Shown here: positions 6,708 to 48,300 of the stretch, one piece after another | Layout: the number at the start of each line of letters is the position of its first letter | How positions within the stretch are numbered: position 1 is the first letter of the stretch | Origin: Haliotis asinina | Taxonomy: Eukaryota > Mollusca > Gastropoda > Lepetellida > Haliotidae | Direction of reading: 5' to 3' | Assembly (NCBI RefSeq): GCF_037392515.1 | Contig: NC_090280.1 | Span: 22,945,118 to 23,009,117 of the forward strand | DNA: 64,000 nt | Position numbers and translations under genes: made by a program | Notes under the pieces: model-generated | The model's database searches: none | What the model was told of the DNA's origin: nothing | Seen by the model: the letters and a program-made list of their open reading frames with translations, nothing else

Positions 6708-6924
6708 AATTGAATAAGAATGTTGATGCTAAATCAGTGTTGTTAATATACTTTGATATACATCAGTTAAGCTGAGAGACCAATACCAGTACAATCCTCT
6801 GTTAAAAATGGCATCGTGGAAAACATTTCCTGTTGTTGGGTGATTAGTAAATGAAGTACTCTTGTTTTGTCAGCTGAAACGTTAGCTTGTTGAGATGTTA
6901 AACTGTATAGGCTCTGTTGAAAAG

Positions 6925-7450
6925 TGAAAACACGTGCAGATGTGGAACTGTAAAGTCAGTTTAGGTTTCACCTAGTACTGTGGTCCTCTGTTGAGGAAGA
7001 TGAAGGATGGAGAGACGTGTAGATCTGGAACTGTACCGTCAGTTTAGGTTTTACCTGGTACTGTGGTCCTCTGTTGAGGAAGATGAAGGATGGAGAGACG
7101 TGTAGATGTGGAACTGTACCGTCAGTTTAGGTTTTAGCTGGTATTGTGGTCCTCTGTTGAGGAAGATGAAGGATGGAGAGACGTGTAGCCGTGGAACTGT
7201 ACAGTCAGTTTAGGTTTCACCTGGTACTGTGGTCCTCTGTTGAGGAAGATGAAGGATGGAGAGACGTGTAAGTGTGGAACTGTACCGTCAGTTTAGGTTT
7301 CACCTGGTACTGTGGTCCATTGATGAGGAAGATGAAAGATGGAGAGACGTGTAGACGTGGAACTGTACAGTCAGTTTAGGTTTCACCTGGTACTGTGGTC
7401 CTCTGTTGAGGAAGATGAAGGATGGAGAGACGTGTAGATGTGGAACTGAT
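6925..7450 (-). repeat. 83-bp minisatellite, about 6 units, overlapping the R1 terminal exon
   Basis: Tandem unit of 83 bases with core tgaggaagatgaaggatgg. About six units are seen. The unit nearest the coding exon supplies the last roughly 20 codons and the stop codon of R1, and the rest would be 3' UTR. The unit is not a multiple of 3, so the repeats cannot be read through as protein. Confidence 0.85.
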
Positions 7451-7566
7451 CCCGCAGGAGTCGTTCGTAATCGTATAGGGGTAAGACATCGTTGTTGGAA
7501 GCATGAGGTACATCACTGAAGTCATGGCATAATCTCTCTGCCATCACAGTGAGATATTCACCAAAT
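7383..7566 (-). CDS. R1 terminal cytoplasmic exon
   Basis: Acceptor TGATTGCAG. Enters in phase 2 and reads FGEYLTVMAERL, then PLYDYERLLRDQ, then a Ser-rich end (SLHPSSSS) and TGA. YLTV and YERL are Y-x-x-hydrophobic motifs. DYERLL also fits the acidic dileucine sorting pattern [DE]xxxL[LI]. All three gene copies keep a 60-residue frame here with mainly conservative changes, which supports real coding. The end of the frame lies in the 83-bp minisatellite. Confidence 0.75.
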
Positions 7567-10500
7567 CTGCAATCACAACATTACACTTATGTTACACTTG
7601 CCCATAGGTGCATGTATTTTTCTTTCAAGCAGTGTGCAGCGGAAATCACCTCCTATAAACCACTTCAACTATGGTCATAGATTTCCAACACTTTTTTAGC
7701 AAATTGTGCATCAGTTACATAGATACATTTGCTACTTTCTCTGTCATTTCCACAGGTAATCGATGCCGGCGTTTATCTAAGATTTCTAAAGGTACGTTGA
7801 CTAAATGGTGTTTGACACAGAAGACAGCAACCGTTGATATGAAGATTTGTTCACTAGTTATTACGATGACTGACTCCAGCACTTGAGATAAAAACATGAA
7901 AACGTGTACCTGTTGTCCTGGTTCTCTGCAAGTAAAACAAAAGACTGAGTAACAGTAAAGAATTAGTCACTCTCAGACTAGTCCATCAATATCACCAAAA
8001 CTAGAACACTATAAATATGGCTTCATTATGCTCATATGGGGAATCGAACCTGCGTCTGTGGCGTGAACACCCTATCCACTGGCCTACCGACCGCTCCATT
8101 ACTGAATAAAGGAATCAAAACAACTTCACAAACTAAAATGAGAAGAAAATATTGCAGCACGTCAAGGTGAACCACGGATATGCCCGTATACTGTTCGACG
8201 CTGCATTCAACAATATCCCAGCTAGACTACGCTTGTCTGATACACGCCAGACTTGCCGAGAACACCCAGTGGTTGATATAAAGAGCGTCGATTTACGCAA
8301 CTGGGATACGTCGGAAAAACATGCATGAGCATAATCAACCAGCGTTTCTCACCTGTTGTAACAAGCATGGTTGTTGAAGTTCTGACCAGGCCCTCACGTT
8401 GGGGTACATTTTTGTTGGTTGTGGTGTGTTGGGGATTGGAGGGGTGGGGGTTGAAACTTACATTGCATGCAAAAATATTCATGCATTCGTTGTACCTTTC
8501 ACGTCCCTGCAAACAAGAACAGTGACTGCTGCCACCACAACTGCCACAGCAGTCAGCATAATGGAGTAGACAGCTACGATGGGGACGATGTCGTCTACGT
8601 TTGCATCACCTTCTGATACAAGACAAAGATGACACATATCTGTATTAAGTATGATAATTCATGTGACAATATAGCGAAGTATTTCACCATGGTGTATTTT
8701 CTAGTTCCTGTTACAGCACTAAATAACTTTATGACATAAATAATGTCAACTGACAAAACAGTATTTTGCTCTACAAGAACTATGACACAATAAAGTAAGC
8801 AAGCGATGAATAAGGAAGAATCATTCACCGGGATGACCATTACAGCTCTCCAGACTAGTGGATCCTTTTCCCCAACACGGCCTATCACCAATATCTGGTC
8901 GTCCTTTATGAACACTGAGAAATGTCCTAAGTATTCGGACATCTAGAATATCCGACTCTATTTACAATGTTATAGCTATTCTATTATGGCTATTTCAGAC
9001 TAAATAATCGGGGGTTTTGGTCTCCTTGGTTGGTTTGAGACACGAGTCCTGTTCCAGGCTTCAGACACTAGCCAGTTCGTGCTACGTTTACTCGACATAT
9101 CAGTACCCTATTCAGCAGTTCGAGTTTCACAGTCGTTACACATCATGCTAGTTGTTAACCTTCAGACACCAACCTTCTATTTCCTGGTAGCTCCCATCGT
9201 TTTCGTCTTCCCTGTGATACGACACCACACTGGTAAAAGGGAACATTGAACGTGAGCATAATGAGAGGAAATTATTAAGCTGTGACACGCTCTCAGTTCA
9301 TATCGCGCTCCTAGTCGTGTATAGTTTTGTCTGGTTGGTTTGTTGTTTAACGCCACACTCAACAACATGACAACTATATGTTGACGATCTATAAATAAAT
9401 GGTCTTGGATCACATAATCCAGTGTTCAACAGCACAAGCATCGATCCCGTTCGTCAGCTTTTACGACAAGTATGGGTTGATGAAAATCACTTTACCACGG
9501 GTAATTACACCAATGTGGTGACGAAATATTTATTCATCTTACTTGAAGATTGATGAACATACTCACCGATGACGAGCACATCCTCTCTCTGAAAGTTTAA
9601 AGTGTGTGGGAACAATTATGCATACAAACTTAAAGTATATATTTATTTCTTGCACACTGATGTTACCATTTTTTCTCCATTTAGAAGTTTAAGAGTTTAA
9701 GAGATACTGTACATCATACGGTATGAGTTTCAGTAGAAGGTCAATCAGTGCTAATAGTTGTCAGAATTATAAAATGTTAATAGACCTGTAGTTTTGGTTG
9801 CAAACAGTTCCGGACTGGTTTTCAGATTTTCTACATAACACTACCCCTTAAATACTTCGTATGACCTGTTTAACGTCATCTGAATCAACCGACGTGACGT
9901 ACTAGAATGACGTCCAGCACCAACCTACTATCTCCTCGTAGCCTCCGCCTGTGTCTGCGTCACGGGTGTAAGTGACAACGCTGGGGGAAGGAAATGTAGA
10001 AAGTGGTTGGAATCAAGGATATTTACAAAAAGCAATCCGCTGTCCTCAGACACAAAATTTTGCAAAAGGACAAAATAGTTGTTACAGTTATATGCATGAA
10101 TGTGTTAGTAAAATGGGTAAGTAAGTTAATAGTATTTGAAGCTCTTCTAACGTTTGCCTGAAAGAACGAAATCTTTTTGACACCAACAGCTCATTAGCGA
10201 TGTGCCATTAATTCTGCTTGGGCTTATGCTCCACATATACTGCTACTGATAAGTGAAATAGAGCTAATCAAATCACTGTATTTATGATTAAGTGTTTCCA
10301 CAATAGCAGCTACTACATAATTTTAAGTCAGCTGTTTACACATTTGGCCTTACTCACCGATTACATGTGCATCCTTTACCTGAAACAAATAATTTTGTGT
10401 AAATAATGACATATCCACAATGTTAGATGCAAAATAGAAGATAAACGAATTTCCGGTATAATTATACATCTTTGAAGTGGAAATAAATATCTTGCTATTT

Positions 10501-13500
10501 GTAGAACGACATGTTTATAGAACAACATGTTTGTACAACGACATGTTTGTAGAACAAACGCAACCTGAGTAACACCAGTGTCTTCAAGCATGAATGTCGA
10601 TTAAAACTAGTGTCCTGGAGCCAATGTAAACATAAACTTGGAAACTGAAATCCATTAAACATGTAAATTTGTGCACTCTGTTGATATATATCCTCTTCAA
10701 GCATCATCTTGAAGGTTCCATACAGAATTACTTTAGAAACGCGAGTATCATATTATCATTCATTATGGAGGATGCAAAACGAACAGAAACTGTGCTCAAA
10801 TTAATCTGACTTTCACAGATCAGTCTCCAGACGGTACGATAGCGATTACGTCAGCAAGGGCTGCGTGCGCATAAGTATTCTATTCACTGACGAGTCCTGA
10901 TTTCATCTCAGTCATGCGTATACAAGGATCAGAGTGACGTGGACAGCGTAACGGTGATTGTTGAGTTCAGCAGCGTTGAGGGAAGCGTATTACTAATGAT
11001 TTGTTGAGAGACTGATAGTCATGACAGGACACGTGTGGACGTCTGCCGTAGTCGAGTTACAGCTCAAAATGATACTTACTGAGAACAAGAGTCGTTCCTG
11101 CTCCCAGCATGGCGCCAGATCAACGTCTTCACATTTTGCAGGAGGATTATGCAAATGACGGTCAAAACCGTTACTGACATTGGCTCTGTGAAAGTTTTGA
11201 GCGCGTTTGGAAATAAATTTGATCCCTTCAACGTTATCGTTAATTCAACTTTGCACTGACTACTTTTGTTTTTTCTTGTGTTTCAACCCTGATTGACAAT
11301 TTCAGTGTCAAGAGGGACAAGTTCTTTTCTTCGTTCAACGTCTTATCCCAATGGTGCGTTTCTAAAGTAGTTCAGTATACTTCACAGTCTCCTCTCACAA
11401 TCTGTCCTCTTTCAAACTCTTCCTTAAAGACGGTCTCAGATTCCATTTCCCCACAAGAGACTTGGTTTTCTTCCTTGATGAATATTCACCATCAAGGACA
11501 CTTTTACATTCAATCAAGATACACCACAGACACGTCACAAATCACACCTAGAGAGAATCACTTAATATAGGTAGGACAAAAATTATCATTTCCTTGAAAA
11601 TGTATCACATGTCAGTATGAAGTGAAATAATTATCAGCTAGCTTTCTACTGAGTATGGGTGGAAATAGACATCAGACGCTACATACCAAAGTATTCTTAC
11701 ATGTTTTGCAGACAAAGAAGAGGCATGAAATCAATACTTATTAGTACTGCTTAACATTTCTATAGGTGCATAGATGTATATGAGTTGTGGGGTAAAACTG
11801 TTTAAAGTACTACTCTGGTAACTATCTGATCCCCCATCCCCACCTTCCTAACCAGCGCGTCGTTTTCCCAGACTGTCATACATTATTCACTACATATAAG
11901 AAAGTGCAAAGGGATAACTTACTGACGATGCACTGAACACATACACACGCACACACGCACACACGCACACACGCACACTAGCACACACGCACTCACGCAC
12001 ACGCACAAGCATCCACTCAACACGCTATTAAGTGAGATCGGTATATGTAATTACTGAACCAAAGTGTTTGTGAGTTCTAGTCATTCACTGTCACATCACA
12101 CCGTTTTACCTCCACGTCTCTGTTTTCTACAAACAACAACCATGACGACGACAGTGATGATCACGATCAGGATGGAGCAGACAGCAGTCACTGGGACGAT
12201 GGAAACGACACCAGATTCATTAAGCTCACGTGCTGAAACATTTAATATGGACAATATTCAGTTTAACATTGTATAATCCTGTTTACCTTTCAGAAACAAA
12301 TAACATCCAAGATATGTTGCTTTGTTTAAGGTACATGATGTGAGTGAGTAAATGAGTGGAGTTTTATATCACTTATAACCCAGAAACATCACCCCTCTTA
12401 AGAAGATTTTAATTAGGTTCATGGCATGTCAACCGGGTTGACCCTTCCGATGTTCATCTAAAATGACACTTTCCAACTGCAATATAACCAGTTGCGTTCT
12501 CGATACAACACCCATCGATCCATCTTCATAGAGGGATCCAATAATAATGGTCAAGTTACCAGTGCTACTGTCATTGCATCAATTTGAAGGAAGTAAAAAC
12601 TTTATTACATATCTCATGCAAATATAATCTTGAATTTTACATATTCTGTCACAAAGCATGTTTCCGGAATCTGTGGAGGCCTTACTGAAGACCTCTAGTG
12701 TCAGGTTGCGTGATGCACTCCCATGGTTGTTGTTGACGTGACACGTGTACTGTCCAGACACAGACACATCTATAGCTGGTATAGACAACACAGCCTTCCT
12801 GTGTCCTGTAATCACCATCTGTCTGGATGTGTCCCACCAGGTTACAGTGCAGGCAGGGTTACAGTCAGCAGAACATCTCACTGTTACAGGTTTCCCTTCT
12901 TCTACCTCCAGATTGTCCCTTGTGCCGTCAAACTGTATCTGGTCAGGTCCATCTGCAAAGCATGTGATATAATCAGAAATAATAATTTGATAACTTGATA
13001 TTTTCTTCTATCATACCAATACCACTGTATATCAATTTCACTTGAATTAATTTTTCATCAACTTTCGGTTTAGACTTTTGAAGTTGGTTAGGTTTTATTT
13101 TTTACTCAATGCCTATTCTACTTTTAGTGTTGATCACATCTACATCTGCTAGCCTTGTCGAGTCTAGGCTCACCAATATAAGACTCCCAGTTTCAAAGAT
13201 CTTACTGTTGTCACGAAAATATTACACTCAAATGCAAACGACGACACATGACGCACATTCTGTTTTTGTTCCTCTAAGTCATACGTGTACGTATCAGTCA
13301 GGTATTCCGACTGGATGGTCGACCGCGACTGCAGCAGGGGAAACGTCCAATGTTTTGTTTGTACGAGCTGGATAGCCGCTCAACTGTGATTTTGTTAACA
13401 GTGGGAATCTACAGTCAACTGTATTTTGTATGTACACGTCCGATATTGTCATTTTTATGCTCCGCCTGACCAACGTTGACAGTTCGATTCATGTATTATC

Positions 13501-16157
13501 TTGACGTTCCTGTATATCTCATCTGATGCCCTTACGATTATATCTCTAATGATCAGTGCCTGTACCAGATATTGTCAACGTTTCATGCATTTTACCGTAT
13601 TCTTAATTGTAAACCCAATATTGTCACGATTTTAAAAAGAAGCGTTTTTGAGGACAAAAGCCCCATGAGTGAGTGAGTGAATAGGTTGAGTTTTACGCCG
13701 CACTCAGCAATATTCCAGCTATATAGCAGCGGCCTATAAATAATCGAGTCTGGACCAGACAATCCAGTGATTAATAACATGACCATCGATCTGCGCAAAT
13801 GGGAACCGATGACATGTGTCAACCAAGTCAGCGAGCCTGACCACCCCATTCCGTTAGTCGCGTCCTACGACAAGCAGAGTCGCCTTTTATGGCAAGCATA
13901 GGTTGCTGAAGGCCTATTCTACCCCGGGACCTTTACGGGTACTCGTCGATAAATCACTGTAGATTATTTTTCCCATAATTTTCTTGCATCTGTGCATGGT
14001 CAGAGTTTTCAGGGTCAAATCACACACTCCTGACTGAAAATTGTAGACATGAAATTTTCATGCCATACTTTCAATCGCTTTGATCTGATTCAGTACATAT
14101 TATGTATTGTTAGTTTTGTGTTGATCTTTCGTATTTCAGCTGAGTGGCCCGTGCCCGTTTTTTGCTCATTTAAAATATATGTCCAGGTGAGAAACAATGA
14201 CATGACATAATTTTAAAGTGTTCGTGTATATTGGACATAACACCTGACACCGCTTGCCTTTGAAGCTGAAAGCCTTCACCACAGATTCTGGCTGTGTTCT
14301 CTTCCGAAAGTTCTATATCAACGGACGCCAGTAATGCCTTTTTGTTAGCGCTATGAGTAAACATGGTGTGGAGTTTGGAGCTATATAAATTGACACATTA
14401 TTGTGTAGCTGTCATTAAGTCCTATCAGAACCACAAAGGTACTATCATAATAATGATTCAGAACATAACGGTTCTATGTAAGTTGTATGCTAAGCTGCAT
14501 AGATATGCGAGGTTCCTGTACCGTAAACAAAGGTACGTTCTTACTCACAGAGGACATCCAGTACATGTTCGTGACTCCAGTCAGACTCCAGCCCCTCCTC
14601 CACAGCCTGGCAGCTGTAGGTGTCTCCCTGGTTCTCTCCGCTGACCTGGGTTATTGTCAAGTTATCTCCACCTGTTGGAGACTCATCACCAGATTCTAGG
14701 AGGGTCCTGTCCCTCCTCCAGATGTAGGTCATGGTCAGTTGGGGGTGGTCCGGGGGCAGACTCCGGGACGAGGAGTTGGAGCATGTGAGGGTGACATTCT
14801 CACCTGATACAGGTGAGGCAGGTCCGGTGATGGTAGGTGTGGTTGGCCTCTCTGTGAAAAAAATTTAACAGCTTCGCCGAGACCTTAACACCAGTACTAA
14901 TCAACATGGTTTTACGAAATGTGTGAAAAACATTTTAAAATATGAATCCACTGAGACATAATGAACTAAATGAACTGAATGAACTAAATGCTCTGACACT
15001 TTTATTAATGACGTATTCACCTTTATTGTCAATCAAATAAGCGCCAGCGACACGCTAATACTCCTAATCGGTTTGTTGATTAAATGTTCTACACAGCATT
15101 TAATCAGTTGGCTGGACTAATCCCAAGGTGCGGCGTAAAAATGACATTAGATATGCTCGTTGTTGTTACCTTGACTGGCGCTCGGGATTATAGCAACAAG
15201 ACAGGTGGATTCGGATATACTGCGAGTGAGTAGTTGGTTGGACTGTTGTTAACACGTAAGAACATTCCATATATATATATATATGGCTGCGATCTGTAAA
15301 TAATCAAGTTTGGACCGGACAATCCCGTGACCAGCATCATGAGCATACATCTACGCAATTGGGATACGATGACATGTGTCAACCAAGTCAGCGAGTCTGA
15401 CTACCCAATCCCATTAGTCGTCTCGTGCGACAAGCAAGGGGTAAAGAAGACCAATTCTAACCCGGATCTTCACGGGTATACTGTGAGTAGGCTTGCCATG
15501 TGTAACTCGACAAAAGCACATGCATGCACACGCACGTACACACACACGAGTCTTTATATATGGTTAATTACGTTTTAGTTTAGACGCATTCTTTTAGTTA
15601 TCTACCGTTCCACTCAGTACTCACGTGCTACAACGAGGACATGTCTACATCCAGGAACATTCTCTCCACTGCTTCCCTGACAGTAGTAAGTACCAGCGTC
15701 CTGTACAGTAACATTGTAGATGGTAAACCTCAGCTGTCCGTTCTGTGATGGTGAGTCCTCCCCGGTGTATCGTATCCTGGTAATGTAGCCAGTGTGACTG
15801 TTGTTGAATACCCGTACACGGTGTGTCTTGGGCTGGACCAGTAACAGTATCTTAGATACAGAACCATTCCCCGCTACAAAATACTGGAAGCTGACATTTT
15901 CTGGGTTCATGGCCATGGTAACATCTTCACCAGCACGTGTAACAGTGTATGGGTATCCAATTGTCATGGACACTAGAGCTGTATACGAAAAGGTAATTAG
16001 AATCAGAACTCAACAACACTAGATACAGACGTTAGACATTGCGTAAGATTAAAGTGAAAAGCAACTTAATCAGAGATTCAATATATATTTCAGTTTTCGA
16101 AAACAGATACATACCAAACCCACATAGTGCTACGGACACAATGGAACCCAGAAACAT
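7383..16157 (-). CDS. R1: Ig-superfamily transmembrane receptor gene (complete, 11 exons, two TM exons)
   Basis: Predicted type I membrane receptor. Exon order on the minus strand: leader 16115-16157, V-like Ig 15625-15978, Ig2 14549-14851, Ig3 12686-12952, TM1 12110-12232, m1 10358-10379, tail T 9929-9980, m2 9567-9588, TM2 8496-8612, m16 7910-7925, terminal 7383-7566. Every proposed exon has AG and GT borders. Leader through TM exons are all phase 1. Joining all but TM2 gives 1386 nt (461 aa plus stop); leader-V-Ig2-Ig3-TM2-m16-terminal gives 1284 nt (427 aa plus stop). The ectodomain has N-glycosylation sequons in each domain type. The tails carry YEEI, YLTV and DYERLL, which in other families bind SH2 domains or sorting adaptors. 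The ligand is unknown and no named family was recognised. The domain calls are firm; which small exons are used together is inference. Confidence 0.75.
7910..7925 (-). CDS. R1 micro-exon m16
   Basis: 16 nt between a strong acceptor (TTTTGTTTTACTTGCAG) and a GTACAC donor. Phase 1 in and phase 2 out, adding about five residues (ENQDN). It is needed to join either TM exon to the terminal exon in frame. It is identical in R2 and R3. Confidence 0.5.
7950..8098 (-). repeat. tRNA-derived SINE in the R1 intron
   Basis: The minus strand has a perfect B box (GGTTCGATTCC) and an A-box-like TAGGCCAGTGG about 40 bases upstream, so the head is tRNA-derived. Equivalent heads lie near 27004-27063 and 45752-45812. 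Confidence 0.6.
8496..8612 (-). CDS. R1 second transmembrane exon (TM2)
   Basis: 117 nt, phase 1 both ends, acceptor CTTGTATCAG, donor GTACAA. Encodes GDANVDDIVPIVAVYSI followed by a Val/Ala-rich membrane span and CRDVK. It aligns with TM1 (shared xxIVPxxAVxSI start and VxVC end), so the two are duplicated exons. Splicing from here to m16 and then the terminal exon stays in frame. Confidence 0.75.
9310..9480 (-). repeat. SINE-like fragment in the R1 intron
   Basis: Partial copy of the ACTC-tailed family (taacgccacactcaacaa ... cgatcccgttcgtcagc), between m2 and TM2. Paralogous at 28300-28445 and 47330-47515. Confidence 0.5.
9567..9588 (-). CDS. R1 micro-exon m2
   Basis: 22 nt with an acceptor (AAACTTTCAG) and a perfect GTGAGT donor. 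In phase 0 it reads REDVLVI and exits in phase 1, which fits T upstream and m16 or TM2 downstream. R3 has IKDVLVI. The small size makes this tentative, but borders and length are kept in all three genes. Confidence 0.5.
9929..9980 (-). CDS. R1 tail exon T with YEEI motif
   Basis: 52 nt after a strong acceptor (TTTCCTTCCCCCAG). Only phase 2 is open, giving VVTYTRDADTGGGYEEI. The donor is probably ATA|GTAGGT (phase 0). pYEEI is the classic optimal ligand of Src-family SH2 domains, so this is a candidate signalling tail. Alternatives are a donor four bases further on, or read-through to a nearby stop as a terminal exon. Confidence 0.65.
10358..10379 (-). CDS. R1 micro-exon m1
   Basis: 22 nt with acceptor TTATTTGTTTCAG and a GTGAGT donor. 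It must run phase 1 to phase 2 to link TM1 to T. Its sequence resembles m2 (both end in ATCG before GTGAGT), which suggests a duplicated micro-exon, although the two would then be read in different frames. Confidence 0.45.
11938..12010. repeat. (CACACG)n simple repeat
   Basis: acacacgcacacacgcac run just beyond TM1 on its intron side. Equivalent runs at 31200-31266 and 49828-49880. Confidence 0.85.
12110..12232 (-). CDS. R1 first transmembrane exon (TM1)
   Basis: 123 nt, phase 1 both ends, acceptor AAATGTTTCAG, donor GTAAAA. Encodes a short stalk (RELNESGVVSIVPVTAV), a membrane span rich in Ile and Val, and a basic stop-transfer end CRKQRRG. This fixes the orientation as type I, with the Ig domains outside. 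Confidence 0.85.
12344..12575 (-). repeat. Second short dispersed repeat family in the R1 intron
   Basis: Begins gtgagtgagtaaatgagtgg and continues gttttatatcacttataac. Same architecture as the ACTC-tailed SINE but a different body. Copies at 31722-31965 and, doubled, at 50360-50760. Confidence 0.5.
12686..12952 (-). CDS. R1 Ig domain 3 exon
   Basis: 267 nt, phase 1 both ends. Encodes EVEEGKPVTVRCSADCNPAC, then TVTWW, AIDVSVSGQYTCHV and the closing NLTLEVF. The B-strand Cys (VRC), C-strand Trp and F-strand Cys (YTC) of an I- or C2-type Ig domain are all present, plus an extra C-x3-C. Joins Ig2 through a Tyr-Gly-Pro-Asp linker of the kind seen between Ig domains of many adhesion receptors. 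Confidence 0.9.
13667..13945 (-). repeat. Full-length ACTC-tailed SINE in the R1 intron
   Basis: Between the Ig3 and Ig2 exons. It starts (as its tail) with gtgagtgagtga and ends tgaaggcctattctacccc. The R2 counterpart is at 33047-33330. R3 has a satellite in this intron instead. Confidence 0.75.
14549..14851 (-). CDS. R1 Ig domain 2 exon
   Basis: 303 nt, phase 1 both ends, donor GTGAGT. Reads RPTTPTITGPASPVSGENVT, LTC, TMTYIWRRDRTLLESGDESP and NQGDTYSCQAVEEGLESDW. The B-strand Cys, C-strand Trp and F-strand Cys are present, so this is a complete Ig domain with a Thr/Pro-rich hinge at its start. Confidence 0.9.
15225..15490 (-). repeat. SINE-like copy between V and Ig2 of R1
   Basis: Body of the ACTC-tailed family (gacatgtgtcaaccaagtca) with an (AT)n stretch. 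Counterpart at 34845-35080. Confidence 0.65.
15625..15978 (-). CDS. R1 V-like Ig exon
   Basis: 354 nt, phase 1 both ends, acceptor TTCGTATACAG, donor GTGAGT. Reads YPYTVTRAGEDVTMAMNPEN, GNGSVSKILLL, then RFTIYNVTVQDAGTYYCQG and GCRHVLVVA. The D-A-G-T-Y-Y-C signature is V-set. The expected B-strand Cys after GEDVT is absent (Met/Asn), and a second Cys lies ten residues after the F-strand Cys. Sequons NVS, NGS, NNS and NVT are present. Confidence 0.9.
16115..16157 (-). CDS. R1 leader exon (MFLG class)
   Basis: 43 nt, ATG to GTATGT donor, phase 1. MFLGSIVSVALCGF is a short signal peptide completed by the first residues of the V exon. Same length as the R2 and R4 leaders. The ATG was chosen because it lies 43 nt from the donor in R1, R2 and R4. 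Confidence 0.75.
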
Positions 16158-19771: not shown

Positions 19772-20120
19772 GTGCCACAACGGGGACCTGTCTACATCCA
19801 CTAACTTCCTGTCCATTGGTTCCTTGGCAGTAGTAAGTACCAGCGTCCTGTACAGTAACATTGTAGATGGTAACCCACAGCTGTCCGATCTGTGATGGTG
19901 AGTTCTCCCCGGTGTATCTGATCCTGGTCCTGTAGCCGACTACTGCTGAGTACCCCTACACGGTGTGACTTGGGCTGGACCAGTAACAGTATCTTAGATA
20001 CCGAACCATTTACCCATACATAATATACTAAGCTGACATTGTCTGGGTTCATGGTCATGTTAACATCTTCACCAACACGTGTAACAGTGTATGGGTATCC
20101 AATTGTCATGGAGACTAGAG
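19772..20120 (-). pseudogene. V-like exon of orphan cassette L1 (frameshifted)
   Basis: Acceptor and GTGAGT donor are intact and the exon reads YPYTVTRVGEDVNMTMNPDN and YYVWVNGSVSKILLL normally. It then loses two bases near the D/E-strand (after VGVLSSS), so the frame is lost. The exon is 349 nt, not a multiple of 3. Its nearest leader is at 20385-20460. No Ig2 exon lies between it and R1, so it could only ever have spliced into R1's Ig2. Confidence 0.8.
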
Positions 20121-20384
20121 CTGCACTCAAAACAAATATTACTCCTGAAAACAAGGCTGACATAAATATTCAAGCACATTATTTAAGCCCGCTCAATATA
20201 TTACAAGTTGACAGATACATGGCACGTATACAGGCAAGCAAACGATATGTAAACCAGAAATTAAGGCGTCAAACTATCTAGTTTCTCTGAATAATATTTT
20301 ATTAGAGAAAACTGGTCACTTATAAAAAGTCATGTAAAGCTCATGTAATTCAAATAATGTTCTTCTCAGCTGACAGGTACATGC

Positions 20385-26051: not shown

Positions 26052-26412
26052 AAGTGGAGACACGTGCTGATGTGGAACTGTACCGTCAGTTTAGGTTTCA
26101 CCTGGTACTGTGGTCCTCTGTTGAGGAAGATGAAGGATAGAAAGACGTGTAGACGTGGAACTGTACCGTCAGTTTAGGTTTCACCTGGTACTGTGGTCCT
26201 CTGTTGAGGAAGATGAAGGATGGAAAGACGTGTAGACGTGGAACTGTACCGTCAGTTTAGGTTTCACCTGGTACTGTGGTCCTGTGTTGAGGAAGATGAA
26301 GGATGGAAAGACGTGTAGACGTGGAACTGTACCGTCAGTTTAGCTTTCACCTGGTACTGTGATCCTCTTTTGAGGAAGATGAAGGATGGAGAGACGTGTA
26401 GATGTGGAACTG
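26052..26412 (-). repeat. 83-bp minisatellite, about 4 units, R2 3' end
   Basis: Same unit as in R1. Four units are seen, the fewest of the three genes. The first unit encodes the R2 C-terminus and stop. Confidence 0.85.
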
Positions 26413-26530
26413 ATCCCGCAGGAGTCGTTCGTAATCGTATAGGGGTAAGACATCGTTGTTGGAAGCACGAGGTACATCACTGAAGTCATGGGATAATCTC
26501 TCTGCCATCACAGTGAGATATTCACCAAAT
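26347..26530 (-). CDS. R2 terminal cytoplasmic exon
   Basis: 184 nt, phase 2 in, FGEYLTVMAERLSHDFSD ... PLYDYERLLRDQ ... SLHPSSSSKEDHSTR then TGA. Differs from R1 by a few residues only. Confidence 0.75.
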
Positions 26531-29500
26531 CTGTAATCACAACATTACACTTATGTTACACTTGCCCATAGGTGCATGTATTTTTCTTTCAAGCAGTGTG
26601 CAACGGAAATCACCTCCTATAAACCACTTCAACTATGGTCATAGATTTCCAACACTTTTTTTTAGCAAATTGTGCATCAGTTACATAGATACATTTGCTA
26701 CTTTCTCTGTCATTGCCACAGGTAATCGATGCCGGCGTTTATCTAAGATTTCTAAAGGTACGTTGACTAAATGGTGTTTGACACAGAAGACAGCAACCGT
26801 TGATATGAAGATTTGTTCACTAGTTATTACGATGACTGACTCCAGCACTTAAAATAAAAACATGAAAACGTGTACCTGTTGTCCTGGTTCTCTGCAAGTA
26901 AAACAAAAGACTGAGTAACAGTAAAGAATTAGTCGCTCTCAGACTAGTCCATCAACATCACCAAAACTAGAACACCATAAATATGGCTTCATTATGCTCA
27001 TATGGGGAATCGAACCTGCGTCTATGGCGTGAACACCCTATCCACTGGCCTACCGACCGCTCCATTACTGAATAAAGGAATCAAAACAACTTCACAAACT
27101 AAAATGAGAAGAAAATATTGCAGCACGTCAAGGTGAACCACGGATATGCCCGTATACTGTTCGACGCTGCATTCAACAATATCCCAGCTAGACTACGCTT
27201 GTCTGATACACGCCAGACTTGCCGAGAACACCCAGTGGTTGATATAAAGAGCGTCGATTTACGCAACTGGGATACGTCGGAAAAACATGCATGAGCATTA
27301 TCAACCAGCGTTTCTCACCTGTTGTAACAAGCATGGTTGTTGAAGTTCTGACCAGGTCCTCACGTTGGGGTACATTTTTGTTGGTTGTGGTGTGTTGGGG
27401 ATTGGAGGGGTGGGGGTTGAAACTTACATTGCATGCAAAAATATTCATGCATTCGTTGTACCTTTCACGTCCCTGCAAACAAGAACAGTGACTGCTGCCA
27501 CCACAACTGCCACAGCAGTCAGCATAATGGAGTAGACAGCTACGATGGGGACGATGTCGTCTACGTTTGCATCACCTTCTGATACAAGACAAAGATGACA
27601 CATATCAGTATTAAGTATGATAATTCATGTGACAATATAGCGAAGTATTTCACCATGGTGTATTTTCTAGTTCCTGTTACAGCACTAAATAACTTTATGA
27701 CATAAATAATGTCAACTGACAAAACAGTATTTTGCTCTACAAGAACTATGACACAATAAAGTAAGCAAGCGATGAATAAGGAAGAATCATTCACCGGGAT
27801 GACCATTACAGCTCTCCAGACTAGTGGATCCTTTTCCCCAACACGGCCTATCACCAATATCTGGTAGTGCTTTATGAACACTGAGAAATGTCCTAAGTAT
27901 TCGGACATCTAGAATATCCGACTCTATTTACAATGTTATAGCTATTCTATTATGGCTATTCCAGACTAAATAATCGGGGGTTTTGGTATCCTTGGTTGGT
28001 TTGAGACACGAGTCCTGTTCCAGGCTTTAGACACTAGCCAGTTCGTGCTACGTTTACTCGACATATCAGTACCCTATACGGCAGTTCGAGTTTCACAGTC
28101 GTTACACATCATGCTAGTTGTTAACCTTCAAACACCAACCTTCTATTTCCTGGTAGCTCCCATCGTTTTCGTCTTCCCTGTGATACGACACCACACTGGT
28201 AAAAGGGAACATTGAACGTGAGCATAATGAGAGGAAATTATTAAGCTGTGACACGCTCTCAGTTCATATCGCGCTCCTAGTCGTGTATAGTTTTGTCTGG
28301 TTGGTTTGTTCTTTAACGCCACACTCAGCAATATGACAACTATATGTTGACGATCTATAAATAAATGGTCTTGGATCACATAATCCAGTGTTCAACAGCA
28401 CAAGCATCGATCCCGTTCGTCAGCTTTTACGACAAGTATGGGTTGATGGAAATCACTTTACCACGGGTAATTACACCAATGTGGTGATGAAATATTTATT
28501 CATCTTACTTGAAGATTGATGAACATACTCACCGATGACGAGCACATCCTCTCTCTGAAAGTTTAAAGTGTGTGGGAACAATTATGCATACAAACTTAAA
28601 GTATATATTTATTTCTTGCACACTGATTTTACCATTTTTTCTCCATTTAGAAGTTTAAGAGTTTAAGAGAAACTGTACATCATACGGTATGAGTTTCAGT
28701 AGAAGGTCAATCAGTGCTAATAGTTGTCAGAATTATAAAATGTTAATAGACCTGTAGTTTTGGTTGCAAACGGTTCCGGACTGTTTTTCAGACATTCTAC
28801 ATATCACTACCCCTTAAATAATTCGAATGACCTGTTTAACGTCATCTGAATCAACCGATGTGACGTACTAGAATGACGTCCAGCACCAACCTACTATCTC
28901 CTCGTAGCCTCCGCCTGTGTCTGCGTCACGGGTGTAAGTGACAACGCTGGGGGAAGGAAATGTAGAAAGTGGTTGGAATCAAGAATATTTACAAAAAACA
29001 ATCAGCTGTCCTCAGACACAAAGTTTTGCAAAAGGACAAAATAGTTGTTACAGTTATATGTATGAATGTGTTCACAAAATGGGTAAGCAAGTTATCAGTA
29101 TTTGAAGCTCTTCTAACGTTTGCCTGAAAGAACGAAATCTTTTTGACACCAACAGCTCATTAGCGATGTGCCATTAATTCTGCTTGGGCTTATGCCTCAC
29201 ATATACTGCTACTGATAAGTGAAATAGAGCTAATCAAATCACTGTATTTGTGATTAAGTGTTTCCACAATAGCAGCTACTACATAAATTTAAGTCAGCTG
29301 TTTACACATTTGGCCTTACTCACCGATTATATGTGCATCCTCTACCTGAAACAAATAATTTTGTGTAAATAATGACATATCCACAATGTTAGATGCAAAA
29401 TAGAAGATAAACGAATTTCCGGTATAATTATACATCTTTGAAGTGGAAATAAATATCTTGCTATTTGTAGAACGACATGTTTATAGAACGACATGTTTGT

Positions 29501-32500
29501 ACAACGACATGTTTGTAGAACAAACGCAACCTGAGTAACACCAGTGTCTTGAAGCATGAATGTCGATTAAAACTAGTGTCCTGGAGCCAATGTAAACATA
29601 AACTTGGAAACTGAAGTCCATTAAACATGTAAATTTGTGCACACTGCTGATATATATCCTCTTCAAGCATCATCGTGAAGGTTCCATACTGAAGTACTTT
29701 AGAAACGCGAGTATCATATTATCATTCATTATGGAGGATGCAAAACGAACAGAAACTGTGCTCAAATTAATCTGACTTTCACAGATGAACTTGACGCATA
29801 CCAAGAAATGCCCACGTGACCCACCATTTGCTGGAAATCAACTTTTCACCTGCAAAATCCGTGAAAATGCGTAAACGTGGCGTTTTCACAACACATTGTC
29901 AGATCAGTCAACTGTGTACCAAAATCACACCGAAATTTTGAACTTCACCAAATTGCTGACTTGGGCACAACATGTGATCGAGCACATCTTTGCCAACCAT
30001 GTGTCCAGCCCGAGATCGCCGCATACAAGTTCAAGCCAGCCTCCAGAACAGATATTACCATTCATGGAAGAAGGGATATCGTCAGTCTCCAGACGGTACG
30101 ATAGCGATTACGTCAGCAAGGGCTGCGTGCGCATAAGTATTCTATTCACTGACGAGTCCTGATTTCATCTCAGTCATGCGTATACAAGGATCAGAGTGAC
30201 GTGGACAGCGTAACGGTGATTGTTGAGTTCAGCAGCGTTGAGGGAAGCGTATTACTAATGATTTGCTGAGAGACTGATAGTCATGACAGGACACGTGTGG
30301 ACGTCTGCCGTAGTCGAGTTACAGCTCAAAATGATACTTACTGAGAACAAGAGTCGTTCCTGCTCCCAGCATGGCGCCAGATCAACGTCTTCACATTTTG
30401 CAGGAGGATTATGCAAATGACGGTCATAACCGTTACTGACATTGGCTCTGTGAAAGTTTTGAGCGCGTTTGGAAATAAATTTGATCCCTTCAACGTTATC
30501 GTTAATTCAACTTTGCACTGACTACTTTTGTTTTTTCTTGTGTTTCAACCCTGATTGACAATTTCAGTGTCAAGAGGGACAAGTTCTTTTCTTCGTTCAA
30601 CGTCTTATCCCAATGGTGCGTTTCTAAAGTAGTTCAGTATACTTCACAGTCTCCTCTCACAATCTGTCATCTTTCAAACTCTTCCTTAAAGACGGTCTCA
30701 GATTCCATTTCCCCACAAGAGACTTGGTTTTCTTCCTTGATGAATATTCACCATCAAGGACACTTTTACATTTAATCAAGATACACCACAGACACGTCAC
30801 AAATCACACCTAGAGAGAATCACTTAATATAGGTAGGACAAAAATCATCATTTCCTTGAAAATGTATCACGTGTCAGTAGGAAGTGAAATAATTATCAGC
30901 TAGCTTTCTACTGAGTATGGGTGGAAATAGACATCAGACTCTACATACCAAAGTATTGTTACATGTTTTGCAGACAAAGAAGAGGCATGAAATCAATACT
31001 TATTAGTACTGCTTAACATTTCTATAGGAGTATATATGTATATGAGTTGTGGGGTAAAACTGTTTAAAGTACTACTCTGGTAACTATCTGATCCCCCATC
31101 CCCACCTTCCTAACCAGCGCGTCGTTTTTCCAGACTGTCATACATTATTCACTACATATAAGAAAGTGCAAAGGGATAACTTACTGACGATGCACTGAAC
31201 ACATACACACGCACACACGCACACACGCACACACGCACTCACGCACACGCACACGCACACGCACAAGCATCCACTCAACACGCTATTAAGTGAGATCGGT
31301 ATATGTAATTACTGAACCAAAGTGTTTGTGAGTTCTAGTCATTCACTGTCACATCACACCGTTTTACCTCCACGTCTCTGTTTTCTACAAACAACAACCA
31401 TGACGACGACAGTGATGATCACGATCAGGATGGAGCAGACAGCAGTCACTGGGACGATGGAAACGACACCAGATTCATTAAGCTCACGTGCTGAAACATT
31501 TAATATGGACAACATTCAGTTTAGCATTGTATAATCCTGTTTACTTTTCAGAAACAAATAACATCCAAGATATGTTGCTTTATTTAAGGTACATGATGTG
31601 ATTACAAAATACCAGAGATATAATTTATACCAGGATTACAAATATAACCAGGGCTGCACCGTATCTGCGAATTTGAGTAGGTGAGTTGATGAGTGAGCAG
31701 GTGAGTGGGTAAGTGGGTGGGTGGGTATGGGTGAGTGAGTAAATGAGTGGAGTTTTATATCACTTATAACCCAGAAACATCACCCCTCTTAAGAAGATTT
31801 TAATTAGGTTCATGGCATGTCAACTGGGTTGACCTTCCCGATGTTCATCTAAAATGACACTTTCCAACTGCAATATAACCAGTTGCGTTCTCAATACAAC
31901 ACCCATCGATCCATCTTCATAGAGGGATCCAATAATAATGGTCAGGTTGCCAGGTTGCATCCATTTGAAGGGAGTAAAAACTTTATTACATATCTCATGC
32001 AAATATAATCTTGAATTTTACATATTCTGTCACAAAGCATGTTTCCGGAATCTGTGGAGGCCTTACTGAAGACCTCTAGTGTCAGGTTGCGTGATGCACT
32101 CCCATGGCTGTTGTTGACGTGACACGTGTACTGTCCAGACACAGACACATCTATAGCTGGTATAGACAACACAGCCTTCCTGTGTCCTGTAATCACCATC
32201 TGTCTGGATGTGTCCCACCAGGTTACAGTGCAGGCAGGGTTACAGTCAGCAGAACATCTCACTGTTACAGGTTTCCCTTCTTCTACCTCCACATTGTCCC
32301 TTGTGCCGTCAAACTGTATCTGGTCAGGTAGATCTGCAAAGCATGTGATATAATCAGAAATAATAATTTGATAACTTGATATTTTCTTCTATCATACCAA
32401 TACCACTGTATATCAATTTCACTTGAATTAATATTTCATCAACTTTCGGTTTAGACTTTTGAAGTTGGTTAGGTTTTATTTTTTACTCAATGCCTATTCT

Positions 32501-39271: not shown

Positions 39272-40204
39272 GTGCCACAACGAGGGCCTGTCTACATCCA
39301 GTAACTTCCTGTCCAATGCTTCTGTCAACGGGTGGATGAGATCGACGTGATTACTTACATGCAATACTTTGACGAAATGAAGGCATAGTTTAGTTGTTCA
39401 AACTTCTTTAGATGGTTTCACAAGATATGACAAACAAGTATACATCAATGAGGTGAGCGGACTTCCAGCTCAACCCCAGGGCCTTTCCTGCGAGCGGCAT
39501 AATCCTGCTCACTGTCGTCCCTACACAGACAGTCGGAACACCGGTCTCCACACTCACATCACACGTCTCACGTACAGTATAGATGTGAGCATGCATATAT
39601 ATATAGTTTTTAACAACAATAGACAGGCAAAAATTCAACAAAGGACAGATAGAGAAACAATAGCACTTCTTTCTACAGTTGATGTGATGACAGACACAGC
39701 CAAGGGGGGTGACCAATAAAGGCCATAAATGTCATATACAGTAATTAATGGAAGTGACAAAGAGGAACAAGGTAACTGACAAAACAATGTACTCTGCGGT
39801 AGTGATAAAGATCAAGATTGTAGATCGAATAATAATAACTAAATATCATATAGCCTGGCTATATTGTTTTTGGTCTGTAGAAATATTTGGGCATGACTGT
39901 CCTGAAGTAGACACTATAACATTTCTTTGACAGTAGTAAGTACCAGCGTCCTGTACAGTGACATTGTAGATAGTAAACCTCAGCTGTCTGCTGTATCTGA
40001 TCCTGTTCCTGTAGCCGGTATGGCTGTTGTTGAGTCCCTCTAGTCGGTGTGAGCTAGGGATGACTACTAACAGTTTCTTAGATACCGAACCATTCATAAA
40101 CACGGAGTATACTGAGCTAACATTCTCCTGGTTCATGATCATGTTAACATCTTCACCAACACGTGTAACAGTGTATGGGTATCCAGTTGTCATGGAGGCA
40201 AGAC
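39272..40204 (-). pseudogene. V-like exon of orphan cassette L2, split by a ~600-bp insertion
   Basis: The 5' part (40204 down to about 39928) reads YPYTVTRVGEDVNMIMNQEN and NVTVQDAGTYYCQ. The 3' end with its GTGAGT donor is at 39272-39322. Between them lie about 605 unrelated bases. The 5' part also lacks about eight codons (the TGEDSPSQ segment). The exon cannot encode a whole domain. Confidence 0.8.
39323..39927. other. Unidentified ~605-bp insert inside the L2 V exon
   Basis: No terminal inverted repeats or clear target-site duplication could be seen. It contains an (AT)n stretch and a minus-strand open frame of about 100 codons without a recognisable domain. Not found elsewhere in the window. 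Its nature is unknown. Confidence 0.5.
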
Positions 40205-40467
40205 CTGCACTCAAAACAAATATTACTCATGAAAACAAGGCTAACAGTTGACATATGTATTCAAACACAGTATTTAAGCTCGCTCAATATATTACAACTT
40301 GACAGATACATACCACATATACAGGCACGCAAACGAAATGTAAACCAGAAAATAACGTGTCAAAATATCGAGTTTCTCTCAAAACTATTTTCTTTGACAA
40401 AACTGGTTACTTATAAAAAGTCATGTAAAGCTCATTTAATGGGTTTTTTCAGCTGACGGGTACATAC

Positions 40468-44502: not shown

Positions 44503-45190
44503 GAGACACGTGCAGATGTGGAACTGTACCTTCAGTTTGGGTTTCACCTGGTACTGTGGTCCTCTGTTGAGGAAGATGAAGGATGGAAAGACGTGTAGAT
44601 GTGGAACTGTACCGTCAGTTTAGGTTTCACCTGGTACTGTGGTCCTCTGTTGAGGAAGATGAAGGATGGAAAGACGTGCAGATGTGGAACTGTACCGTCA
44701 GTTTAGGTTTCACCTGGTACTGTGGTCCTCTGTTGAGGAAGATGAAGGATGGAAAGACGTGTAGATGTGGAACTGTACCGTCAGTTTAGGTTTCACCTGG
44801 TACTGTGGTCCTCTGTTGAGAAAGATGAAGGATGGAAAGACGTGCAGATGTGGAACTGTACCGTCAGTTTAGGTTTCACCTGGTACTGTGGTCCTCTGTT
44901 GAGAAAGATGAAGGATGGAAAGACGTGTAGATGTGGAACTGTACCGTCAGTTTAGGTTTCACCTGGTACCGAGGTCCTCTGTTGAGGAAGATGAAGGATG
45001 GAAAGACGTGCAGATGTGGAACTGTACCGTCAGTTTAGTTTTCACCTGGTACTGTGGTCCTCTGTTGAGGAAGATGAAGGATGGAAAGACGTGTAGATGT
45101 GGAACTGTACCGTCAGTTTAGGTTTCACCTGGTACCGAGGTCATTTGTTGAGGAAGATGAAGGATGGAGAGACGTGTAGGTGTGGAACTG
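44503..45190 (-). repeat. 83-bp minisatellite, about 8 units, R3 3' end
   Basis: Largest of the three arrays. Adjacent units alternate between two variants (gacgtgtagatg and gacgtgcagatg), which suggests expansion by a two-unit step. Confidence 0.85.
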
Positions 45191-45308
45191 ATCCCGCAGG
45201 AGTCGTTCGTAATCGTATAGGGGTAACACAGCGTTGTTGGAAGTACGAGGTACATCACTGAAGTCACGGGATAATCTCTCTGCCATCACAGTGAGATATT
45301 CACCACAT
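45125..45308 (-). CDS. R3 terminal cytoplasmic exon
   Basis: 184 nt, phase 2 in. CGEYLTVMAERLSRDFSD ... PLYDYERLLRDQ ... SLHPSSSSTNDLGTR then TGA. Both tyrosine motifs and the dileucine are retained despite about eight replacements, as expected for a constrained coding exon. Confidence 0.75.
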
Positions 45309-48300
45309 CTGTAATCACAACATTACACTTATGTTACACTTGCCCAGTTCAACTATGGTCATAGATTTCCAACACTTTTTTAGCAAATTGTGCATCAGTT
45401 ACATAGATACATTTGCTACTTTCTCTGTCATTTCCACAGGTAATCGATGCCGGCGTTTATCTAAGATTTCTAAAGGTACGTTGACTAAATGGTCTTTGAC
45501 ACCGAAGATAGCAACCGTTCATATGAAGATTTGTTCACTAGTTATTACGATGACTGACTCCAGCACTTAAGATAAAAACATGAAAACGTGTACCTGTTGT
45601 CCTGGTTCTCTGCAAGTAAAACAAAAGACTTGTACATTTCTAAACGGATCGATTCATCCAACACTGAGTAACAGTAAAGAATTAGTCGCTCTCAGACTAG
45701 TCCATCAACATGACCAAAACCAGAACACTATAAATATGGCTATACTCATATGGGGAATCGAACCTGCGTCTGTGGCGTGAACACCTTATCCACTGGCCTA
45801 CCAACCGCTCCATTACTGAATAAAAGAATCAAAACAACTTCACAAACTAAAGTGAGAACAAAATATTGCAGCACGTCAAGGTGAACCACGGATATGCCCG
45901 TATACTGTTCGACGCTGCATTCAACAATATCCCAGCTAGACTACGCTTGTCTGATACATGCCAGACTTGCCGAGAACACCCAGTGGTTGATATAAAGAGC
46001 GTCGATATACGCAACTGGGATACGTCGGAAAAACATGCATAATCAACCAGTGTTTCTCACCTGTTGTAACATTGGTTGCTAAAGACAAGTTCTGACCAGG
46101 CCCTCACGTTGGGGTAATTTTTTGTTGGTTGTGGTGTGTTGGGGATTGGAGGGGTGGGGGTTGAAACTTACATTGCATGCAAAAATATTCGTGCATTCTT
46201 TGTACCTTTCGCGTCCTTGCAGACAAGAACAGTGACTGCTGCCACCACAACTGCCACAACAGTCAGCATAATGGAGTAGACAGCTACGATGGGGACGATG
46301 TCGTCTACGTTTGCATCACCTTCTGATGCTAGACAAAGATGACACATATCTGTATAAAGTATGATAATTCATGTGACAATATAGCGACGTATTTCACCAA
46401 GGTGTATTTTCTAGTTCCTGTTAAAGCACTGATTAACTTTATGACATAAATAATGTCAACTGACAAAATAGTATTTTGCTCTACAAGAACTATGACACAA
46501 TAAAGTAAACAAGCGATGAGTAAGGAAGAATCATTCACCGGGATGACCATTACAGCTCTCCAGACTAGTGGATCCTTTTCCACAATACGACCCATCACCA
46601 ATATCTGGTAGTGCTTTATGAACATTGAGAAATGTCCTAAGTATTCGGACATCTAGAATATCCGACTCTATTTACAATATTATAGCTATTCTATTATGGC
46701 TATTTCAGACTAAATAATCGGGATGGGGGGGGGGGGTCTCTTTGGTTGGTTTGAGACACGACAACTGTTCCAGGCTTCAGACACTAGACAGTTCGAGCTA
46801 TATTTCATCATAAAATGCACGGCGCGGCAGTTCGAGTTTCACAGCCGTTCCACTGTCTGTAATCGAGTATGGATGAGACAATCCAAATACCAACAGCATG
46901 ACCATCGATCTGCGCAAATGGGAACAAATGATATGTGTCAAACATGTCTGCGAGAACGACGTGCCGATCCTTTTAGTTGCCTCTTACGACAAGCATAGTC
47001 GACGTTTATGACAAGCATGGGTTGCTGAAGACTATCTACCATGGACATGTAAGAGTCCTTCAGACAGGAGATAATTCGAGCTACGTTTACTCGACAAATC
47101 AGTACCCTATACGGCAGTTCGAGTTTCACAGTCGTTACACATCATGCTAGTTGTTAACCTTCAGACACCAACCTTCTATTTCCTGGTAGCTCCCATCGTT
47201 TTCGTCTTCCCTGTGATACGACACCAGACTGATCAAAGAGAACATTGAACGTGAGCATAATGAGAGGAAATTATTAAGCTGTGACACACTCTCAGTTCAT
47301 ATCGCGCTCCAAGTCGTGTACAGTTTTGCCTGGTTGTTTTGTTGTTTCGCGCCGCACTCAGCAATATCACAGGTATATGTCGACGGTCTGTAAATAAACG
47401 GTTCTGGACCAGATAATCCAGTGTTCAACAGCATAAGCGTCGATCCCGTTCATCAGCTTTTACGACAAGCATGGGTTGATGAAAACCAATTCTAGCCTGG
47501 ATCTTCACGGGTACTTACACCAATGTGGTGATGAAATATTTATTCACCTTACATGGAGATTAATGAACATACTCACCGATGACGAGCACATCCTTTATCT
47601 GTAAGTTTAAAGTGTGTGGGAACAATTATACATAAAAACTTAAAGTATATATTTATTTCTTACACACTGATATTACCACTTTTTCTCCATTTAGAAGTTT
47701 AAGAGTTTAAGAGATACTTTACCTCATACGGTATGAGTTTCAGGAGAAGGTCAATCAGTGCTAATAGTTGTCAGAATTTTAAAATGTTGATATACCTCTA
47801 GTTTTGGATGTTGACAGCTTACCAAAAGTCCAAGACTGCTTTTCAGACATTCTACATAACACTACCCTTTTAAAAATTCGTATGACCTGTTTAATGTCAT
47901 CTGAATCAACTGACATGGCGTACTAGAATGACGTCCAGCACCAACCTGCTATCTCCTCGTAGCCTCCGTCTGTGTCTGCGTCACGGGTGTATGTGACACC
48001 GCTGGGGGAAGGAAATGTAGAAAGTGGTCGGAATCAAGGATATTTAGAAAAACAATCCGCTTTCCTCAGACACAGAATCTTGCAAAGGACAAAATAGCTG
48101 TTACAGTTATATGCATGAATGTGTTCACAAAAAGGATAAGCACGTTCTGCCTTATCGGTAGTTCACGCTCTTCTAACATTTGCCTGAAAGTAAGAAATCT
48201 TTGTGACAAGAACAGCTCATTAACGATGTGCCATTAATTCTGCTTGGGCTTATGCTCCACATATACTGCTACTGATAAGTGAAATAGAGCTAATCAAATC

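What the first reader, a model, noticed from the sequence alone, without database searches (positions are those of the whole stretch)
7383..12232. Two duplicated transmembrane exons giving two in-frame receptor tails
Each of R1, R2 and R3 has TM1 and TM2 exons about 3.6-3.8 kb apart, clearly related to each other and both phase 1-1. TM1-m1-T-m2-m16-terminal and TM2-m16-terminal both close in frame in all three genes. Three independent exon sets would rarely do this by chance. The result would be one ectodomain with two alternative cytoplasmic tails: one with YEEI plus the shared motifs, one with the shared motifs only. Using both TM exons also stays in frame and would give a two-pass protein. 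I know of no described molluscan receptor with this layout, but could not search.
Basis: partly seen in the sequence, partly recalled or inferred. Interest (0 to 1): 0.85.

Follow-up and report, generated by a model that had tools for sequence, protein, structure and literature searches.

The report
Snail immune receptors with spare anchors
A large family of immune-type receptor genes in an abalone-like sea snail carries two different membrane-anchor exons per gene, both apparently kept by selection, so each gene could probably make a receptor with a long or a short signalling tail, although no RNA evidence was available.

Summary
The exons are real. Each window gene has TM1 and, 3.6-3.9 kb downstream, TM2; both are phase 1-1 with AG/GT sites. 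Two corrections. The three genes are recent tandem copies (R1 and R2 TM1 and TM2 exons are identical), so not independent.

The genome holds 57 full matches of the terminal exon; 53 have both TM exons (TM2 broken in one). TM2 is intact in 54 of the 55 copies found. At high divergence its exon stays near 0.085 differences per site while flanks reach 0.27, so it is unlikely to be a dead duplicate. The terminal exon encodes an ITAM-like motif (strict in 42 of 57). A sister subfamily (25 TM1 copies) has ITIM-type tail exons and no detected TM2.

Most likely, splicing picks TM1 plus two YxxI cassettes, or TM2 alone, before one shared ITAM-like tail. No transcript was seen; a two-pass form stays possible. 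Alternative TM exons are known from Dscam1; this is a new variant of that kind.

The parts
12110..12232 (-). R1 TM1 exon (123 nt, phase 1-1)
   Evidence: peptide found at 80 places genome-wide
8496..8612 (-). R1 TM2 exon (117 nt, phase 1-1)
   Evidence: intact in 54 of 55 copies
10358..10379 (-). R1 micro-exon m1 (22 nt, phase 1 to 2)
9925..9980 (-). R1 T1 exon (56 nt, YEEI)
   Evidence: alternative 52-nt donor
9567..9588 (-). R1 micro-exon m2 (22 nt)
9174..9229 (-).
   Evidence: pN/pS 0.08
7910..7925 (-). R1 micro-exon m16 (16 nt, phase 1 to 2)
7383..7566 (-). R1 terminal exon with YLTV and ITAM-like YERLx7YTSL
   Evidence: 57 full matches genome-wide
12686..12952 (-). R1 Ig3 exon
14549..14851 (-). 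R1 Ig2 exon
15625..15978 (-). R1 Ig1 (V-set) exon
31368..31490 (-). R2 TM1 exon
   Evidence: L013, converted to window coordinates
27462..27578 (-). R2 TM2 exon
   Evidence: L013, converted
28891..28946 (-). R2 T1 exon
   Evidence: L013, converted
28140..28195 (-). R2 T2 exon
   Evidence: L013, converted
26876..26891 (-). R2 m16
   Evidence: L013, converted
26347..26530 (-). R2 terminal exon
   Evidence: L013, converted
50009..50131 (-). R3 TM1 exon
   Evidence: R3, converted
46206..46322 (-). R3 TM2 exon
   Evidence: R3, converted
47946..48001 (-). R3 T1 exon
   Evidence: R3, converted
47173..47228 (-). R3 T2 exon
   Evidence: R3, converted
45594..45609 (-). R3 m16
   Evidence: R3, converted
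45125..45308 (-). R3 terminal exon
   Evidence: R3, converted

Best explanation
Each gene is a tandem-array Ig receptor with two alternative, apparently homologous transmembrane exons. Splicing joins the ectodomain (Ig3) either to TM1, followed by two duplicated micro-exon plus tyrosine-exon cassettes (m1-T1 YEEI, m2-T2 YQEI in R1), or directly to TM2. Both routes end in the same m16-Term tail with YLTV and an ITAM-like pair (YERLx7YTSL). The products would be one ectodomain with a long tail (two extra SH2-type docking sites plus the ITAM-like pair) or a short tail (the ITAM-like pair only). SHOWN here: the exons, splice sites, frames, long-term constraint on TM2, and co-occurrence of TM2 with this tail. 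INFERRED: use of TM2 in mRNA, mutual exclusion, single-pass topology, and signalling through Src/Syk-type kinases.
For: TM2 peptide: 54 matches over the whole or all but one end residue, none with a stop, plus one frameshifted copy, each next to a Term copy. 55 of 55 keep AG/GT; 54 of 55 keep length and frame. Among the intact copies, exon p-distance plateaus at 0.085 when flanks are at 0.27; all 54 exons have the same length, while flanks show about 5-8 gap events per 100 bp in the diverged pairs; the exon is less diverged than the flanks in 744 of 820 pairs. pN/pS for TM2 is 0.50 (0.31-0.83), against about 1.0-1.1 for Ig1 and Ig3, whose ranges are wide, and 0.08 for T2. Long and short routes are in frame in 19 of 19. 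TM2 has the same phase, an IVPxxAVxSI start and a VCR end like TM1. 55 of 57 Term genes have a TM2 (broken in one), and near the 25 TM1 copies of the sister subfamily with ITIM-type tails none was detected. TM2 has the weakest mean donor score of ten exons (-0.3; m16 0.1 is close) (weights recalled).
Against: No transcript seen. The short form needs Ig3 to skip TM1, m1, T1, m2 and T2 as a block. All alternatives, including both TM exons or none, are in frame (19 of 19), so frame does not enforce a choice. In the 62 closest pairs the exon is about as diverged as its flanks, and among 19 close copies the TM2 exon (0.040) is hardly slower than neighbouring mid-introns (0.047, 0.052; a third 0.072). 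Stop codons alone are a weak test: 8, 79 and 127 of 300 neutral simulations gave 1 or fewer broken copies at full, half and 0.3 rate. Flank charges give TM2 little orientation signal in the short form (N side -2, C side -1; TM1 -1 and +6). Two Term genes lack TM2. A pattern search for processed copies joining m16 to Term found none.
Confidence: 0.6

Rival explanations
1. TM2 is a cassette exon added to the TM1 transcript, giving a two-pass protein with the T1/T2 cassettes in a cytoplasmic loop and the Term tail outside.
For: In frame in 19 of 19 copies and needs inclusion of only one exon. Flank charges do not argue strongly for either orientation of TM2.
Against: It would put the conserved tail tyrosines outside. 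The 16 residues before TM2 would carry net charge -7 on the cytoplasmic side, and TM2 aligns with TM1 in the same orientation.
Confidence: 0.16
2. TM2 is a dead duplicate that survives because the array is young and homogenised.
For: The array is recent. One of 55 copies is broken and two Term genes lack TM2. Among close copies exon and intron divergence are similar.
Against: Exon divergence saturates and exon length is unchanged at flank divergence up to about 0.27. pN/pS 0.50 with upper bound 0.83. Splice sites intact in 55 of 55.
Confidence: 0.07
3. TM2 belongs to a separate short transcript starting inside the gene, a DAP12-like free ITAM adaptor.
For: An ATG element with a GTAAGT donor and a hydrophobic start lies between TM1 and m1 at window 11110-11080, phase 1.
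Against: The element is not conserved: ATG absent in L018-L021, element cut short in L027-L028, not found in L022, L024, L065. The region 5' of TM2 is not constrained.
Confidence: 0.05
4. Splicing can also skip both TM exons and yield a secreted ectodomain, with TM choice as one part of a membrane/secreted switch.
For: m16-Term directly after a phase-1 exon such as Ig3 is in frame in 19 of 19. A crustacean Dscam without TM is named in the reference list of PMC3364881.
Against: It does not explain why two TM exons are kept.
Confidence: 0.12

Closest known systems
Arthropod Dscam1 exon 17 (two mutually exclusive transmembrane exons; passages in PMC1397879, PMC3364881, PMC12074976)
   Same: Ig-superfamily receptor; two homologous TM exons in tandem, one used per mRNA in Dscam1, ahead of a shared tail
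   Different: Here the two TM exons are separated by tail cassettes that only the upstream TM can use, so TM choice also sets the tail. Three Ig exons and no FN3 hit, in a large tandem family and not a single gene.
Botryllus fester co-receptors (FcoR; passages in PMC12065747)
   Same: Invertebrate Ig receptors in a cluster, with ITIM/hemITAM tails and alternative splicing that swaps motifs at some loci
   Different: There motifs are swapped; here a TM exon switch would add or drop two YxxI cassettes while keeping the ITAM-like pair. Sushi domains there; here Pfam found Ig-type domains plus a TM-segment hit below its cut-off.
CEACAM paired ITAM/ITIM receptors (passages in PMC2110893, PMC5856374)
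   Same: Tandem Ig family with ITAM and ITIM members; TM and tail exons evolve together; splicing changes the tail
   Different: The horse CEACAM42 and CEACAM50 tail changes in the passages use alternative donors at one TM exon, not a second TM exon
Oyster CgIgIT2 (passage in review PMC11999971)
   Same: Molluscan Ig-TM-ITAM receptor of the haemolymph
   Different: Five Ig domains and a TM domain described; no second TM exon mentioned in the passages seen; sequence not compared here

Membership tests
Dscam1-type mutually exclusive TM exons | two homologous, same-phase TM exons in tandem | tested here: met
   53 of 57 genes carry both, TM2 broken in one; homology support is moderate
Dscam1-type mutually exclusive TM exons | both TM exons can join the same downstream exon in frame | tested here: met
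   TM1-m16 and TM2-m16 in frame 19 of 19
Dscam1-type mutually exclusive TM exons | only one TM exon per mRNA | not testable with these tools
   no RNA held
Dscam family | ectodomain of 10 Ig and 6 FN3 domains | tested here: not met
   Pfam finds Ig domains and no FN3 in the 466-aa R1 model
ITAM-bearing receptor | Yxx[LI]-x6-8-Yxx[LI] in the tail (consensus recalled) | tested here: met
   42 of 57 Term peptides; of the other 15, 14 have V, P or F at the first +3 position and 1 has F at the second; 49 of 8600 shuffled peptides fit
Paired ITAM/ITIM receptors | related ectodomain with an ITIM tail in sister genes | tested here: met
   Ig3 and TM1 types shared; 25 of 25 TM1 copies at 24.2-27.2 Mb followed by an ITIM-type exon; only Ig3 and TM1 compared; motifs read in 3 of 26 tail hits; ITIM consensus recalled
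Paired ITAM/ITIM receptors | opposite signalling from shared ligands | not testable with these tools
   needs biochemistry

The most novel reading that the evidence does not exclude
In a molluscan array of more than 50 ITAM-type Ig receptor genes, with a sister array of ITIM-type genes, the choice of transmembrane exon is itself the signalling switch. Taking TM1 commits the mRNA to two extra SH2 docking cassettes; taking TM2 removes them as a block. Nearly every gene has kept both options under selection.
Probability: 0.5. Interest if true: 0.75.

Novelty: new variant of a known kind. Interest (0 to 1): 0.6.

Why it matters
If true, anchor choice and tail choice are one splicing decision, a way to give each member of a fast-evolving receptor array two signalling strengths. 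The locus also looks like a molluscan counterpart of vertebrate paired ITAM/ITIM receptor clusters, testable with ordinary haemocyte RNA.

Tried and rejected
Dead duplicate: judged unlikely. 'Three independent sets': rejected, R1 and R2 identical in the key exons. Free ITAM adaptor from an internal ATG exon at 11.1 kb: element not conserved. Read-through of TM2 into its intron: a stop follows within about 6 codons in 21 of 22 copies, R3 being the exception; not pursued as an isoform. Processed copies as splice witnesses: no hit for the m16-Term junction pattern, and its reversed control also gave 0. Divergence of TM2 flanks from one multiple alignment (0.32 and 0.20) is probably inflated by misalignment; I rely with pairwise alignment. 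In the pN/pS table the Ig exons were limited to the commonest length and to copies without a stop.

Full report
Setting. The window lies at G000:C1:22945118-23009117 of a 1.14 Gb genome. The genome carries egg-lysin exons (Pfam PF01303, 6 matches; 0 of 14 control genomes), the best of them matching solved sperm-lysin chains. I take the organism to be a vetigastropod, probably an abalone (that lysin is typical of them is recalled); the species is not identified. The genes R1, R2 and R3 are on the minus strand.

Gene model. In R1 I place Ig1, Ig2, Ig3 (phase 1-1), TM1 (12232-12110), m1 (22 nt), T1 (56 nt, YEEI), m2 (22 nt), T2 (56 nt, YQEI), TM2 (8612-8496), m16 (16 nt) and Term (7566-7383). m1-T1 and m2-T2 look like two copies of one 78-nt cassette, each phase 1 to 1. 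The signal-peptide exon was not located. Pfam finds Ig domains and no FN3 in the 466-aa model.

Frames. Of 21 full copies (20 fetched loci plus R3), the tail exons were all located in 19. In those 19 the long route with T2, the short route TM2-m16-Term, the two-pass route, TM1-m16 and the route with no TM exon are in frame. T2 is the most constrained exon measured (pN/pS 0.08) and was located in 21 of 21 full copies and in L064, so I put it in the long tail; it was not found in L065. In L022, L024 and L065 the T1 motif reads YQQI, not YEEI.

Family. The Term peptide has 57 full matches (55 at C1 22.35-23.57 Mb, 2 at 28.06-28.09 Mb; 150 of 330 candidates scored, the other 93 listed matches being partial, over the exon's end). 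Of the 57, 53 have TM1 and TM2 nearby, 2 have no TM2, 2 have no TM1 within 9.5 kb. One TM2-less copy (L064) has a stop in T1; in the other (L063) TM1 is followed by m16 and Term with no cassette found. I read TM2 DNA in the 55 copies that have it: 54 are 117 nt, open and spliceable; L062 is one base short and frameshifted but keeps AG/GT. TM1 DNA was read in 50 of 55 copies: 48 of 123 nt, 2 of 120 nt, no stop or lost splice site. Term: AG acceptor in 56 of 57; one copy has an early stop after the ITAM-like pair. Some genes are damaged elsewhere: L020 has a stop in Ig2 and some Ig3 matches carry stops.

Selection on TM2. Pairwise, among 41 distinct contexts of intact copies, exon divergence rises to about 0.085 while the flanks go to 0.27; gap events in the flanks reach about 5-8 per 100 bp, while the exons keep one length; the exon is less diverged in 744 of 820 pairs. 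pN/pS with codon-bootstrap ranges: TM2 0.50 (0.31-0.83), TM1 0.71 (0.44-1.15), Term 0.43 (0.24-0.81), T2 0.08 (0.00-0.36), T1 0.66 (0.17-3.14), Ig1 1.01 (0.63-1.84), Ig2 0.59 (0.35-1.05), Ig3 1.10 (0.60-2.48). Against: in the 62 closest pairs the exon is about as diverged as its flanks; in 19 close copies the exon (0.040) is near neighbouring mid-introns (0.047, 0.052; a third 0.072); stop codons alone give a weak test (8, 79 and 127 of 300 neutral runs with 1 or fewer broken copies at three rates). The copies are related by block duplication, so counts of copies are not counts of events.

TM1 and TM2 look homologous: same phase, shared IVPxxAVxSI and VCR, hhalign probability 55% with P 1.2e-4, DNA score reached by 0 of 1000 codon shuffles; the composition-matched protein shuffle is weaker (18 of 2000 reach it).

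Tail. Term carries YLTV and a pair YERLx7YTSL that fits the ITAM spacing (consensus recalled). The strict pattern holds in 42 of 57 Term peptides; of the other 15, 14 have V, P or F at the first +3 position and 1 has F at the second; 49 of 8600 shuffled peptides fit. YEEI and YQEI are SH2-type docking sequences by recall; no binding was tested.

Sister subfamily. At 24.2-27.2 Mb there are 25 TM1 matches, and 25 of 25 are followed 4.4-7.1 kb downstream by a match to an exon with LTYADL and VVYEQI or VVYEEI, ITIM-type (motifs read in 3 loci; three of the 26 tail matches carry more than one stop). No TM2 match lies there (69 of 69 candidates scored, so a strongly diverged TM2 could still be missed) and no full Term was listed. 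In L066 the TM1 exon is followed, by eye, by a 16-nt micro-exon like m16 (one locus). So TM1-m16 may be the shared layout, and the second TM with the YxxI cassettes goes with the ITAM branch. This resembles vertebrate paired receptors; whether ligands are shared is unknown.

How it most likely works. A splicing choice at Ig3 sets both anchor and tail: TM1 leads into the two cassettes, TM2 jumps to m16. This needs a five-exon skip for the short form. Frame does not enforce exclusion, so the choice would have to be regulated. TM2's donor is on average the weakest of ten scored, with m16 close behind (weights recalled), which fits regulated use but proves nothing. The two-pass form is disfavoured because it would export the ITAM-like pair and place a net -7 stretch on the cytoplasmic side; but in the short form TM2's own flanks (-2 and -1) carry little orientation signal.

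Known parallels. Dscam1 exon 17 has two mutually exclusive TM exons (passages in PMC1397879; PMC3364881; PMC12074976). Botryllus oligomorphic FcoR loci can swap ITIM and hemITAM by splicing (passages in PMC12065747). CEACAM tails change with TM and tail exons (passages in PMC2110893 and PMC5856374). Oyster CgIgIT2 is an Ig-TM-ITAM receptor (passage in PMC11999971). Nine paper searches (named in Tried and rejected) listed no molluscan receptor with two TM exons. I therefore call it a new variant of a known kind.

Noticed in passing
G000:C1 24.2-27.2 Mb; L066, L128-L130: Sister subfamily with the same Ig3 and TM1 types but an ITIM-type tail exon (LTYADL, VVYEQI/VVYEEI); 25 TM1 copies each followed by a match to such an exon, no TM2 detected.
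   Followed up: partly
window 6918-7457 and downstream of other Term copies: An 83-base tandem repeat is made of copies of the ITAM-coding end of the terminal exon; the Term peptide search hits the units many times.
   Followed up: no
window 51968-56235: A 4.2 kb array of about 29-base repeats (unit length read from self-BLAST offsets) fills most of the R3 Ig2-Ig3 intron, with strong GC skew.
   Followed up: no
window 11110-11080: ATG element MLGAGTTLVL with a GTAAGT donor between TM1 and m1, kept in some copies and lost in others.
   Followed up: yes
window 19804-20169: A second Ig1-like exon upstream of R1 Ig1 is frameshifted by eye, while R2 has an open counterpart at about 39849-40226.
   Followed up: no
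window 62895-63746, plus strand: Ig1- and Ig2-type exons of an oppositely oriented family member at the window edge.
   Followed up: no
G000:C1 22.74-22.82 and 23.08-23.15 Mb: Two runs of four Term copies with nearly the same spacing suggest duplication of a large multi-gene block (by eye).
   Followed up: no
L063 (G000:C1:22348026-22349400): Copy with TM1 followed by m16 and Term; cassettes and TM2 not found, so it would make a short-tail receptor from TM1.
   Followed up: partly
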